From NCBI GenBank assembly GCA_900316315.1, contig ONCK01000018.1:1-62165 (forward strand): a DNA stretch of 62,165 nucleotides. Direction: 5' to 3'. Below, in pieces: positions 38,311 to 42,754 of this stretch; positions within the stretch are counted from its first letter, which is position 1, and every line of letters starts with the position of its first letter. A program made the position numbers and the translations under genes. The notes beneath the pieces were generated by a model that worked only from the letters and a program-made list of their open reading frames with translations, was not told the origin of the DNA and did not search any database. The stretch comes from an uncultured Prevotellaceae bacterium. Lineage in GTDB: Bacteria; Bacteroidota; Bacteroidia; Bacteroidales; Bacteroidaceae.

Positions 38311-38601
38311 ATGAACAATAAGGAATTTGTTTCTGCGCTTGCCGCCCGCCTGGGCATAGCGCCCAAGGAAGCTCAGAAGAGGATAGACGGATTGGTCGAG
38401 ACCCTCGCCACGCAGCTCGAGCAGGGCAACGAAGTGGCCGTCAGCGGCTTCGGCACCTTTGAAGTAAAGAAGCGCAATGAGCGTGTCATTGTCAATCCCG
38501 CATCAGGTAAGCGTATGCTTGTGCCCCCAAAATTGACCGTCAACTTCAAGGAGAGCTCTTCGCTTAAGACGAGAGGACGGGCCAACACAGACAACGACTG
38601 A
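38311..38601 (+). CDS. HU family DNA-binding protein
   Basis: A 96-residue nucleoid protein. It has the HU/IHF fold: an N-terminal helical body (NKEFVSALAARLGIAPKEAQ), the hallmark VSGFGTFEVKKRNERVIVNP and the tip RMLVPPKLTVNFKESSSLK of the DNA-embracing arm. It ends with a short basic tail. It starts 12 bases after rimO and 49 bases before the HU-LysM gene, so rimO-HU-HU/LysM probably form one transcript. Confidence 0.92.
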   Translation: MNNKEFVSALAARLGIAPKEAQKRIDGLVETLATQLEQGNEVAVSGFGTFEVKKRNERVIVNPASGKRMLVPPKLTVNFKESSSLKTRGRANTDND

Positions 38602-38650: not shown

Positions 38651-39988
38651 ATGCCGCGCATTACATTACGAGATTTTGCAGAAGCTATGAGCAGCCGGAC
38701 CAAGCTCACCAAGAGCGCATCCGAATCTACGCTACGTGCCGTATTTGAACTTATCGGGACGCATCTCTACGCTGACAATTATGTCAAGATCAAAGGGCTC
38801 GGCGTATTTAAGCTGTTGACGGTCCGCGGCCGCGAAAGCGTCAGTGTCAATACAGGAGAGCGCATTGAGATTGCTTCCCATAGTCGCATCTCCTTCACCC
38901 CGGACAAGGCGCTTGCCGAACGCATTAACAAGCCTTTCTCCTCTTTCCAGACTGTCACCATCGACGACTCCTCTGCCGTGGCGTCCGATGGCTTGACTCC
39001 CACAGAGACCATTTCCGAGGCTGCATCTCCCGAGAATACTCCGTTCTCCGACGGAGCAGTCTCCCTCTCTCAGCCCTCTGCAGACCAAAGCGCTCAGCCT
39101 CAGACTGCGCCTTCTGTCTCAGTTCCGCCTTCTTCCTGTCTGCTGCAGCCAGCATACGACGCGATACCGGTCTCTACTGCCTATATAGGTGATGACGAAG
39201 CACCCGAGACTGACTCGGCCGACGTCGCTCAGCCGCATGCATCTGCAGAGGAACAGACCTCTCCGGATACAGTTGCCGTCACTGACCAACTTTCACCCGA
39301 GGACGCCTCAGAACAGTCTGCCCTTGACAGCCAGGAGGATACCAGTGAAGCTGTGAGCGAGTCGTCAGACCGTGACGCAGGGATACAGCAAGATGGTTCC
39401 TGCGAGCCGAACATTCCCGCGCCATCAGAGACCATCGACGACACCTCCGATGATGGGCAGGAGGCCACCCTCTCTGCCACTGGGCGGAGGGGATGGCTCA
39501 TCGTCCTCTGTATCGTATTGGCCGGCGTGTGCGGTTATCTGCTGGGCTATTATCGCGTTTTTGTTCCGCAGGCAGCCTCATCATCTCCTAGTGCGCAGGT
39601 ACAGAAGCCGCAAGCCACCAGCAGTCCGCAGCGCCCGAAGACCGGCAATCTGTCCAAGGACACTGTGAAGCGTGCCACTCATGCAGACAGCGTCCGCCTC
39701 CGCATGGCAGCCGCCCAGGCTGACTCCGTAGCATTGGAGAAGCGCAAGGCCCAGCTGCGTCAGGAGAGTCGTAAATACAATCAGATGCCCTCCGCCACTC
39801 ATCTGATAGCGGGTACCTACAAGGTTCATACAATGAAGTCTGGAGAATCCCTGATCAGGCTCAGCAAGCAGATTTACGGCTCCAAGGAAATGGCCAAGTA
39901 TGTTGTCTTTTACAATGGCCTGTCCAATCCCGATGTCGTGCCCGTCGGTACTAAGGTACGCTTCCCCCTGCTTGTCAGCAAGCAGTAA
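38651..39988 (+). CDS. HU-like DNA-binding domain fused to membrane segment and LysM domain
   Basis: A 445-residue protein with an unusual order. Residues 1-100 are HU-like (MPRITLRDFAEAMSSRTKLT, YVKIKGLGVFKLLTVRGRES, ISFTPDKALAERINKPFSSF). Residues 105-275 are a low-complexity Ser/Asp/Glu/Pro-rich linker. A single hydrophobic segment lies at about 280-298 (WLIVLCIVLAGVCGYLLGYY), with RR before it. A second linker leads to a LysM domain at 386-443 (YKVHTMKSGESLIRLSKQIYGS, VPVGTKVRFP). By the positive-inside rule the HU part is cytoplasmic and LysM is periplasmic. It could therefore link the nucleoid to peptidoglycan, which is inference. HU-LysM-type proteins are annotated in Bacteroidales without a known function that I can name. 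Confidence 0.85.
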   Translation: MPRITLRDFAEAMSSRTKLTKSASESTLRAVFELIGTHLYADNYVKIKGLGVFKLLTVRGRESVSVNTGERIEIASHSRISFTPDKALAERINKPFSSFQTVTIDDSSAVASDGLTPTETISEAASPENTPFSDGAVSLSQPSADQSAQPQTAPSVSVPPSSCLLQPAYDAIPVSTAYIGDDEAPETDSADVAQPHASAEEQTSPDTVAVTDQLSPEDASEQSALDSQEDTSEAVSESSDRDAGIQQDGSCEPNIPAPSETIDDTSDDGQEATLSATGRRGWLIVLCIVLAGVCGYLLGYYRVFVPQAASSSPSAQVQKPQATSSPQRPKTGNLSKDTVKRATHADSVRLRMAAAQADSVALEKRKAQLRQESRKYNQMPSATHLIAGTYKVHTMKSGESLIRLSKQIYGSKEMAKYVVFYNGLSNPDVVPVGTKVRFPLLVSKQ

Positions 39989-40309: not shown

Positions 40310-41463
40310 ACTCAAATTTCGGAAGTAAAATGATTGACCCATCACCATTAGGACTGATCACAGGGAATCAGAGCTGCCCGATGTGATTATATTGCATGAC
40401 ACGGACCAGCCAAAGACCGGCCGGCACATCGAGAAGATAGGCAGGTTGTTCTCGTACGTGGTTCAGAAGCATACCGGCTTCAAGGCTCTGACAAAGGCTT
40501 GGAGTGACGGAAAAGACTGTCCTGTGCCAGGAGCAGAGCCTTTTGTGTGAGAACGGGAAGAATGAGAGGAAACCGCAGGAGCTGACGGCCAAGCAGTGCA
40601 AGGAGGGATTCTCGAAAACGCGTGACCCGCAGCACCCCGGTGCCAAGAGACAGGAGGAGTACTTCACGTCAAAGTGTGAGCTCATCAAGAAGATGGTAAA
40701 ACGTGCTATCGCCAACCCTATGCCGTTTGAGTGCGTACTTACTGGTGGACAGCTGGTTCACAATCATCTGACTTGTAGAATATGTCTGCCTCTCAAAGAA
40801 GAAGTTCCATCTCTTGGGAATGGGCAAGATGGAAAACACGAAATATGGTACGCAGTGGGGAGAACTGACAATTAATGTCATTTTGAGAAAGCTGCAGGCA
40901 GCGAAGCGGTCCAAATACAGCAGGGCGCTACACTGCAAGTGCGCCGTGATGGATGCGACACTTGGCAAGAAGGAGGTGCGTCTCTTCCTTTGCAAGAGGA
41001 AAAAGGCGGAAAAGTGGAGTGTTCTGGTGACTACAGGCCTCAAACTTAACTTCATGAAGCATACCGCGTTTTATGCCATGAGATGGGGTATCGAGGTCTT
41101 CTATGAGGACACAAAGAGAAACCTGGGCCTGAGCGACTGCTCCTGCCGCAACATCACTTCTCAAACCGCCTACGCTGTGCTGGTTACCATACGATACAAC
41201 ATCATGGCCTATGTCAGCGGTTCCACAATTATGAGACAATCGGTGGACTGTTCAGAGATATGCACTCAAGCGTGAAGGAGATTACAGTGATCGACTATAT
41301 CTGGGGTGCGATACTTGAAGTTGTTAGCACTGTCGCAGGAAGCTTCACGTTCAACGAGGATGATGTGATGCGACAGATTATCGCAGACAACCGATGACTG
41401 ACCTTGTTCAGTCACTTGCTAAAACTGCATAACGTAACGATTTTTTTCTTCCGAAACTTGAGT
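40310..41463 (+). mobile_element. Degenerate IS4-like insertion sequence
   Basis: A 1154-base unit bounded by inverted repeats ACTCAAATTTCGGAAG (40310-40325) and, reverse-complemented, ACTCAAGTTTCGGAAG (41448-41463), 15 of 16 bases the same. It encloses a decayed DDE transposase. No target duplication was clear outside the ends, so both flanks may have diverged. Confidence 0.65.
40381..41397 (+). pseudogene. IS4-family DDE transposase, frameshifted
   Basis: Coding pieces in different frames: DVIILHDTDQPKTGRHIEKI and GRLFSYVVQKHTGFKALTKA (first catalytic Asp in the DTD-PKTG motif); a frame from 40504; then, from 40814, WGELTINVILRK, KCAVMDATLGKKEVRLFLCK and MRWGIEVFYEDTKRNLGLSD (catalytic Glu in the Y-x2-R/W-x-I-E region). 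After another shift the end IWGAILEVVSTVAGSFTFNE reaches a TGA at 41395-41397. At least three frameshifts show that it is inactive. Confidence 0.75.
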
Positions 41464-42066: not shown

Positions 42067-42075
42067 CTTGTCTCG

Positions 42076-42146
42076 TTGGGATACCCGGACTCGAACCAGG
42101 AAAAACAGGACCAGAATCTGTTGTGTTACCATTACACCATATCCCA
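42076..42146 (-). tRNA. tRNA-Gln (anticodon CUG)
   Basis: A 71-base cloverleaf: acceptor TGGGATA/TATCCCA, D-arm GTGT AATGGTA ACAC, anticodon stem ACAGA/CCTGT with loop TTCTGGT giving CUG, four-base variable loop, and T-arm CCTGG TTCGAGT CCGGG. The discriminator is A. The innermost anticodon-stem pair (A31-C39) is a mismatch. CCA is not encoded. Confidence 0.9.
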
Positions 42147-42164
42147 ATGGTCTCAATTCGGATG

Positions 42165-42172
42165 CAAAGGTA
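42165..42172 (-). promoter_or_regulatory. -7 box upstream of tRNA-Gln
   Basis: TACCTTTG on the minus strand, 18 bases before the tRNA 5' end. Confidence 0.6.
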
Positions 42173-42304
42173 CTACTTTTTTTATTGTTGCCAAATAATT
42201 TGACAAAAAAATCAGTCTCCTCGTTGCAAAAATCTCAGGGATGTCGGAACCGGGCAGTGGCTTGGGTGATTGGCCAGATGGTGAGAGGGTGATATGGGCT
42301 CTAT

Positions 42305-42342
42305 AAATCAAACAGGTGGTGTAGTCTTGACTACATCACCTG
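42305..42342 (-). terminator. tmRNA terminator
   Basis: On the minus strand CAGGTGATGTAG and CTACACCACCTG pair over 12 bases with one G-U, followed by TTTGATTT, 15 bases after the tmRNA 3' end. Confidence 0.85.
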
Positions 42343-42356
42343 CTCTGCTCGCTGCG

Positions 42357-42754
42357 TGGACCTGGAGGGAATCGAACCCTCGTCCAAACGGGGAAGCCAT
42401 ACGCTTTCTACACGTTTATTCCGGCTTTGGTTTTCGAATATCAGCAAGCCCCGGACGACTAACTGGTACCTTATCCTCTAAATTTTCATCCGACGTACGA
42501 GGTTATGCCAGACTATTTCCGATTTACCTGCGCCGCTAGACCAAGACGATTCGGAACCACACCGCTTGAGCGACGTCTCGTCCTGTCACCTGGTGACGGG
42601 ATTGAGCCAGTAATCTACTGTACTTCGATTAGGCAGCGAGAGCGTAATTGTTTTCGCCAATTATATGTTGCAATACTCAGTTTAAGGAGCAAGTGCTGCA
42701 AGGCTCCGCGTGCTTACGTACATCCTCTGCCCGCTGTCAAAACCAGTCAAGCCC
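42357..42754 (-). ncRNA. ssrA: Transfer-messenger RNA
   Basis: A 398-base one-piece tmRNA that rescues stalled ribosomes. The 5' part begins GGGCTTGACTGGTTTTGACAG and its first seven bases pair with CAGGTCC near the 3' end (two G-U pairs), forming the tRNA-like acceptor; the T-arm is GAGGG TTCGATT CCCTC. The tag reading frame (minus strand, about 42630-42660) encodes GENNYALAA and then TAA, the normal proteolysis tag with a hydrophobic Ala-Ala end. The discriminator is A and CCA is not encoded. Promoter box and terminator flank it. Confidence 0.95.

What the first reader, a model, noticed from the sequence alone, without database searches (positions are those of the whole stretch)
38651..39988. 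A protein that could tether the nucleoid to the cell wall: HU domain, one membrane segment, LysM domain
Seen: an HU-like DNA-binding domain (1-100), a long acidic low-complexity linker, one strong hydrophobic helix preceded by two arginines, a second linker and a C-terminal LysM domain. Known: HU binds DNA without strong sequence preference; LysM binds the GlcNAc backbone of peptidoglycan. Inference: with HU inside and LysM outside, one molecule could link chromosome and wall. It directly follows a normal HU gene and rimO/ftsY. I do not know a published function for it.
Basis: partly seen in the sequence, partly recalled or inferred. Interest (0 to 1): 0.8.

Follow-up and report, generated by a model that had tools for sequence, protein, structure and literature searches.

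The report
Two-part HU complex spanning cell envelope
Next to a small DNA-packing protein gene sits a protein that carries a second such domain inside the cell, one membrane crossing, and a probable wall-binding domain outside; the two genes travel together in many related bacteria and may form one complex that links the chromosome to the cell wall.

Summary
In detail: window 38651-39988 encodes 445 aa with an HU domain (1-96), an acidic linker, one membrane helix (281-300) and a C-terminal LysM fold (384-443). Its family occurs in 35 of 198 sampled genomes of its order and in 39 of the 45 listed genomes of one family (f40) of another class. The "normal HU gene" upstream is not the housekeeping HU. 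It is a dedicated paralogue ("HU1"): 26 of 26 HU1 hits of 95 bits or more in 198 genomes lie beside a fusion, and the two frames overlap or lie within 20 bp in 120 of 132 loci. In three genomes HU1, the second HU domain ("HU2"), a membrane helix and LysM are one chain, clearest in one. I read it as a split, heterodimeric, membrane-anchored HU/IHF-like complex. HU1 carries the basic, proline-tipped DNA arm; in most Bacteroidales HU2's arm is near neutral and has lost the proline, and some lineages shortened or lost it. The chromosome-to-wall bridge is a good but unproven inference; DNA and peptidoglycan binding are untested. The closest known design is CCDC81-HU/TM/SPOR, also in this genome.

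The parts
38311..38601 (+). HU1: dedicated HU paralogue, 96 aa, proposed partner of the fusion protein; proline-tipped basic arm (VNPASGKRMLVPPK)
   Evidence: PF00216 4.7e-24; HU1 profile hit 127 bits at this place (the window's HU1 is one of the 20 rows of that profile); branch separate from ordinary HU (other HU1 members)
38651..39988 (+). HU2-TM-LysM fusion protein, 445 aa (P0001)
38651..38938 (+). HU2 domain, residues 1-96, IHF-like strand VKIKG, arm tip Val66 where HU/IHF have Pro
   Evidence: PF00216 9.5e-17; model and Foldseek to HU/IHF; column counts
38951..39484 (+). acidic disordered linker, residues 101-278 (net charge -36)
39491..39550 (+). single membrane helix, residues 281-300, preceded by Arg-Arg
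39551..39799 (+). second linker with helix 349-373, residues 301-383
39800..39979 (+). LysM domain, residues 384-443

Best explanation
The gene is the membrane subunit of a two-part HU/IHF-like complex. HU1 (38311-38601) and the HU2 domain of the fusion protein form a heterodimer in the cytoplasm. HU1's basic proline-tipped arm provides most of the grip on DNA; HU2 contributes the other dimer half and a weaker arm (hydrophobic tip in most Bacteroidales). HU2 is tied by a long acidic brush-like linker to one membrane helix, and the LysM domain holds peptidoglycan in the periplasm. The complex would thus couple the nucleoid to the wall, probably for chromosome positioning or segregation, or to keep wall growth and division in register with the nucleoid. 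Shown here: domains, fold, conserved order, one membrane segment, charge bias for N-in, tight linkage of the pair, natural single-chain versions. Inferred: heterodimer, DNA binding, peptidoglycan binding, the bridge and its purpose.
For: Small HU gene directly upstream on the same strand in 80 of 80 named loci, 25 of 25 f40 loci (24, the last), 27 of 27 further loci and 17 of 17 wider regions (these overlap earlier loci). Stop/start overlap in 74 of 132 and overlap or a gap of 20 bp or less in 120 of 132. HU1 profile: 26 hits of 95 bits or more in 198 genomes, all 26 beside a fusion, next hit 75.6 bits. One branch holds HU1 of Bacteroidales and f40 (99/94), another HU2 of both (100/99), ordinary HU apart. 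HU1-HU2-TM-LysM as one ORF in L256, L257, L258 (L257 has 2 PF00216 stretches, 1.3e-12). HU1 and HU2 distances correlate after control for rimO and ftsY (0.238, 0 of 500 permutations as high), HU1 and LysM hardly (0.05, 96 of 500). Arm chemistry. Topology bias.
Against: No complex was modelled: no multimer prediction was at hand. Short or lost HU2 arms in f81, f130 and f138 show that DNA bending is not needed everywhere. LysM in this copy gives no Pfam match, and a LysM fold does not prove wall binding (Kbp's LysM is not known as a wall binder; recalled). The co-evolution signal is small, and HU1 also correlates with ftsY given rimO (0.196). Linkage shows joint function, not contact. The window's own copy has a 49 bp gap between the genes, longer than in 120 of 132 loci. 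The HU1 profile was built from linked genes, and HU1 of divergent pairs scores only 64-66 bits (G457, G437, G573, G544), within the range of ordinary HU, so a divergent lone HU1 would go unseen. Two of the three single chains rest mainly on family profiles.
Confidence: 0.5

Rival explanations
1. The HU domains act as a protein-protein adaptor and no longer bind DNA: HU1 and HU2 form a scaffold at the inner membrane, as proposed for eukaryotic CCDC81-type HU domains (recalled), and LysM positions it on the wall.
For: HU2 median core charge 0 and arm -1 in 112 Bacteroidales fusions; tip Pro lost in most; arm cut to 10-13 residues from 27 in L173, L175, L176 and short by eye in L255, L256, L258; HU1 tip Pro lost too in f81 (2 of 2), in 1 of 2 f130 and 1 of 2 f138 genomes; weak matches to CCDC81-type HU models.
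Against: HU1 keeps Pro in 109 of 111 and arm charge +6 in Bacteroidales; HU2 has Lys at positions 43 and 45 (E. coli HU numbering) in 106 and 92 and Arg58 in 106 of 112; f40 HU2 keeps Pro in 25 of 25 and Arg58 in 25 of 25. The window's HU2 core is as basic as E. coli HU-beta.
Confidence: 0.2
2. The fusion is a membrane-bound regulator: LysM senses the state of the wall and the cytoplasmic HU complex changes DNA looping or transcription (ToxR-like logic, recalled).
For: DNA-binding type domain, one membrane helix and a periplasmic sensor-like domain in one chain; a long disordered linker that could be cleaved.
Against: HU/IHF domains are not typical of such regulators (general knowledge); the context outside the pair is not conserved, so no regulated neighbour stands out.
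Confidence: 0.12
3. The fusion works alone as an HU2 homodimer tether; HU1 is a soluble relative that is merely co-expressed.
For: Ordinary HU forms homodimers (established knowledge); the fusion's HU domain has a complete HU fold.
Against: Single-chain HU1-HU2 proteins, no unlinked strong HU1 hit, frame overlap, division of arm chemistry.
Confidence: 0.1

Closest known systems
HU-CCDC81_bac_1/_2 - TM - SPOR proteins (Pfam PF18174, PF18175, PF05036; Burroughs et al. 2017, Cell Cycle 16:1093; paper not held, content recalled, only its reference entry seen)
   Same: Two HU-type domains, one membrane helix, then a wall-binding domain. One lies in this same genome on contig C13, with SPOR confirmed. 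In 30 CCDC81_bac_1 proteins the charge bias is N-in in 29 (SPOR was not checked in the other 29, and four of the 30 have a hydropathy peak under 1.6). CC2 matches both HU1 and HU2 profiles (96.5 and 96.7% probability); CC1 matches HU1 weakly (47.8%) and HU2 hardly (5.4%).
   Different: LysM instead of SPOR; HU domains on two genes in most members; full DNA arm in HU1; window proteins below the CCDC81 cut-offs. Rarer in the order: 35 of 198 genomes against 54 of 60 with CCDC81_bac_1 over cut-off.
Integration host factor (IHF alpha/beta)
   Same: HU fold; heterodimer proposed; VKIKG strand aligned with IHF alpha's VKLSG; Foldseek 1ihf, 8flj.
   Different: IHF has Pro-tipped arms in both subunits, is soluble, and its two genes are not paired as here (recalled).
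HU (housekeeping nucleoid protein)
   Same: Fold and family PF00216; Foldseek 5lvt, 1p71.
   Different: HU1 and HU2 lie on branches apart from ordinary HU; membrane and wall parts in HU2.
LysM proteins such as Kbp/YgaU
   Same: LysM fold, 1.4 A over 55 columns.
   Different: Kbp pairs LysM with BON in a soluble protein (recalled); here LysM follows a membrane helix.

Membership tests
HU/IHF superfamily (PF00216) | HU fold and Pfam score over cut-off | tested here: met
   61.5 bits against 22.4; Foldseek E 2e-7 to HU
HU/IHF superfamily (PF00216) | DNA-bending arm with intercalating Pro (feature recalled) | tested here: not met
   Val at the tip of this protein and in 95 of 112 Bacteroidales HU2; partner HU1 has Pro in 109 of 111; f40 HU2 has it in 25 of 25. 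Fold membership stands; classical bending by HU2 alone is doubtful
HU/IHF superfamily (PF00216) | binds DNA | not testable with these tools
   needs gel shift or ChIP
LysM (PF01476) | LysM fold | tested here: met
   model pLDDT 95-98; five solved LysM-type matches at 0.7-1.5 A, E 4e-3 to 1e-2
LysM (PF01476) | Pfam score over cut-off | tested here: inconclusive
   no match for P0001 at E<=0.1; 27 of 80 members match at E<=0.01
LysM (PF01476) | binds peptidoglycan | not testable with these tools
   needs sacculus pull-down
HU-CCDC81-TM-SPOR proteins | CCDC81_bac HU models over cut-off | tested here: not met
   no CCDC81_bac match for P0001 at E<=0.1; HU1 24 bits against 35 for bac_2
HU-CCDC81-TM-SPOR proteins | SPOR domain at the C terminus | tested here: not met
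   the C terminus is LysM; the genome's 3 SPOR hits lie on other contigs
HU-CCDC81-TM-SPOR proteins | two HU domains, one membrane helix, wall-binding domain | tested here: met
   as a two-gene set here and as one chain in L256-L258; wall binding itself not tested

The most novel reading that the evidence does not exclude
A split, transmembrane IHF: an obligate HU1:HU2 heterodimer whose soluble subunit grips the chromosome and whose second subunit runs through the inner membrane to peptidoglycan, giving a direct protein link between nucleoid and wall in part of the Bacteroidales and in a second class, beside a parallel CCDC81-HU/SPOR link in the same cell; in some lineages the DNA arms decayed and the complex was kept for another use.
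Probability: 0.4. Interest if true: 0.88.

Novelty: new variant of a known kind. Interest (0 to 1): 0.72.

Why it matters
How Bacteroidota position and segregate their chromosomes, and how the nucleoid is coupled to the envelope, is little known (my own knowledge). This gives a defined, conserved two-gene target in common gut genera (Bacteroides fragilis, Phocaeicola massiliensis and Paraprevotella clara are among the named hits) with clear predictions: a heterodimer, N-in/C-out topology, nucleoid and wall association, and a possibly redundant CCDC81-HU/SPOR protein. A direct chromosome-to-peptidoglycan link would be unusual in bacteria.

Tried and rejected
Rejected: chance assembly of domains (conserved); normal HU neighbour; rimO/ftsY as part of the unit. 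Phylum-wide presence: outside families f1, f18 and f40 the best match in 344 genomes was 8.2e-26, and the listed ones are short ordinary-HU frames, one of 271 aa not opened. Weaker unlisted matches were not inspected, and a real member can score weakly (own-family G379, 1.4e-21), so absence elsewhere is not shown. Six genomes without a match are not named in that answer, so the f40 count is of the 45 listed.

Led nowhere: Burroughs 2017 is not held. Paper searches, listings only: (HU domain with LysM, 0 papers). Passages only were seen of PMC10434189 (BT0577 LysM and an HU are separate table rows, not shown to be this gene), PMC12218091 and PMC5906684. The VIA-align library was not on the machine. 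The second structure job was not used.

Rows dropped or biased: the 80 named loci are the best 80 of 561 relatives found, so they lean to close relatives. In one search four of 110 loci (L115-L118: the window's own copy and three of its family) were left out; with the window protein that gives 107. In one search, 5 of 137 loci gave no measurable pair. In one search, L057's partner was missed because its open frame begins upstream of the HU gene; one search shows it. One search missed the partner of L143; searches show it. In one search, 74 of the 80 named loci were usable. Alignment A2 holds 79 of the 80 (L108 left out for length). Of the 137 fusions 136 are distinct in their last 200 residues.

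Full report
OBSERVATION. The ORF is real and exact: 38651-39988, 445 aa. Pfam finds the HU domain at residues 7-93 (9.5e-17). AlphaFold2 on 80 sequences gives a confident HU domain, a helix at 281-300, a helix at 349-373 and a confident C-terminal domain at 384-443, the rest mostly disordered. Foldseek matches the first domain to HU and IHF (E 2e-7 and weaker) and the last to LysM domains of Kbp and of contractile-injection baseplates at 0.7-1.5 A, with modest E-values of 4e-3 to 1e-2. The linker 101-278 has 37 acidic and 1 basic residue.

TOPOLOGY. In 107 family members each has exactly one segment of mean hydropathy 1.6 or more. Lys/Arg in the 15 residues before the segment exceed those after it in 82, are equal in 18 and fewer in 7 (sign test 2e-17, but the members are related, so these are not 107 independent tests). 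HU in and LysM out is the expected arrangement. It is not shown by experiment.

DISTRIBUTION. Search with the window protein: 28 of 41 genomes have some match at 1e-3, the weakest of them ordinary HU. Order-wide: 30 of 198 genomes carry a clear fusion (loci read), and inspection of weaker hits added five (G544, G486, G442, G494, G578), so 35 of 198, in 19 families by my count; other weak hits were not opened. Phylum-wide: 5 of 5 in the own family (G379 weakly, 1.4e-21, but with a 361-aa frame), 1 of 1 in f18, 39 of the 45 listed genomes of f40, a family of another class; in the other 344 genomes the best match was 8.2e-26, in ordinary-HU-sized frames. Named carriers include Bacteroides fragilis Q1F2, Phocaeicola massiliensis, Paraprevotella clara, Alloprevotella rava, Xylanibacter brevis and Dysgonomonas alginatilytica (which kept the best 80 of 561 relatives).

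THE PARTNER. The genome's best match to the HU family lies elsewhere (C17, 105 bits). A small HU gene lies directly upstream of the fusion on the same strand in 80 of 80 named loci, in 25 of 25 f40 loci, in 27 of 27 further Bacteroidales loci and in 17 of 17 wider regions, which overlap the earlier loci. The genes overlap in 74 of 132 loci, and 120 of 132 overlap or lie within 20 bp; in the window the gap is 49 bp. A profile of 20 HU1 proteins searched over 198 genomes gave 26 hits of 95 bits or more, and by coordinates all 26 sit beside a fusion; the next hit is at 75.6 bits. Two limits: the profile was built from linked genes, and HU1 of divergent pairs scores only 64-66 bits, like ordinary HU, so a divergent lone HU1 would not be recognised. 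A tree of 76 HU domains puts HU1 of both classes on one branch (99/94), HU2 of both on another (100/99) and ordinary HU on a third (100/91); it has only 90 columns and no outgroup root, so inner forks are weak. The pair is therefore older than the split of the two lineages, or moved between them as a unit.

ROSETTA STONE. In L256 and L258 (family f138, two genomes) and L257 (f86) one ORF holds an HU1-like domain, an HU2-like part, a membrane segment and LysM. Pfam sees two HU stretches in L257 (1.3e-12), one weak one in L256 (0.0024) and none in L258, so L257 is the strong case and the other two rest on the family profiles. L256 and L258 are 29.6% identical over their first 190 residues, so they are not copies of one assembly error. 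L256 and L257 have no Met between HU1 and HU2; L258 has Met 71 and 76 there, so a separate start is not excluded in that one (other start codons not examined). This is the best evidence that HU1 and HU2 touch. A weaker sign is the residual correlation of HU1 and HU2 distances (0.238) after rimO and ftsY are taken out, against 0.05 for HU1 and LysM; HU1 with ftsY given rimO is 0.196, so part may be shared history.

WHO HOLDS THE DNA. In E. coli HU numbering, HU1 keeps the tip proline P63 in 109 of 111 Bacteroidales and 25 of 25 f40; the two exceptions, L175 and L176, are both in f81. HU2 keeps it in 25 of 25 f40 but in only 3 of 112 Bacteroidales, where V (95) or I (10) replaces it. Median arm charge: HU1 +6, HU2 -1 in Bacteroidales; +3 and +1 in f40. 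The window's own values are HU1 +6 and HU2 +1, with an HU2 core of +4, equal to E. coli HU-beta, so this copy is less degenerate than the median. Bacteroidales HU2 has Lys at 43 in 106, Lys at 45 in 92 and Arg58 in 106 of 112; in f40 positions 43 and 45 are not basic. The HU2 arm is cut to 10-13 residues from 27 in L173, L175 and L176 (f130, f81) and looks short in L255 (f130) and in L256 and L258 (f138, by eye). In those lineages HU1's tip proline is lost in f81 (2 of 2), in 1 of 2 f130 genomes (L255, not L173) and in 1 of 2 f138 genomes (L256; L258 keeps a Pro nearby); L257 (f86) keeps it. So decay of the arm tends to touch both subunits, but not always. It warns that DNA bending is not the use everywhere.

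COMPARISON. The same genome has a CCDC81-type protein: two HU domains, one membrane helix, SPOR. The first CCDC81 domain is over cut-off in 54 of 60 Bacteroidales genomes sampled. In 30 examples the charge bias is N-in in 29; SPOR was checked only in the own-genome one. Burroughs et al. 2017 predicted a role in chromosome partition; that paper is not held, I rely on recall and saw only its reference entry. Profile comparison links CC2 with HU1 and HU2, and CC1 weakly with HU1. So the design of two HU domains, one membrane helix and one wall-binding domain seems to exist twice, with different wall domains. It works like that family but fails its defining tests (CCDC81 models, SPOR), so I call it a new variant of a known kind.

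VERDICT. The sequence facts are strong. A two-part complex is likely (my estimate 0.7 for a heterodimer). A nucleoid-to-wall tether is the best reading, but every binding step is untested; overall confidence 0.5.

Noticed in passing
G000:C13 about 71038-72144 (L145 799-1905, minus): CCDC81_bac_1 and _2 HU domains, one membrane helix and SPOR in the same genome: a second HU-membrane-wall protein.
   Followed up: partly
L185, L187, L192, L193 downstream of the pair: In several Bacteroidales families the pair is followed by a shared cluster that reads like MoxR ATPase, DUF58 and BatA/BatB-like genes (my reading of the sequences; not tested with Pfam).
   Followed up: no
window 40504-41275: Short reading frames downstream of the fusion; the second (40814-41275) matches a DDE transposase weakly (PF01609 9.5e-4, below cut-off), perhaps a remnant.
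   Followed up: no
window 42075-42754: tRNA-Gln and a tmRNA gene on the minus strand.
   Followed up: no
L120-L144 (f40), also L174 and L254: Members of f40, f101 (L174) and f87 (L254) share a tail after LysM and a canonical HU2 arm; f101 and f87 are filed in the window's order but look like the f40 type, and HU1 of L174 joins the f40 HU1 branch in the tree.
   Followed up: partly
L173, L175, L176, L255, L260, L261: HU2 domains with a strongly shortened or missing DNA arm that still keep partner, membrane helix and LysM (L260 and L261 are the same genes as L176 and L175).
   Followed up: partly
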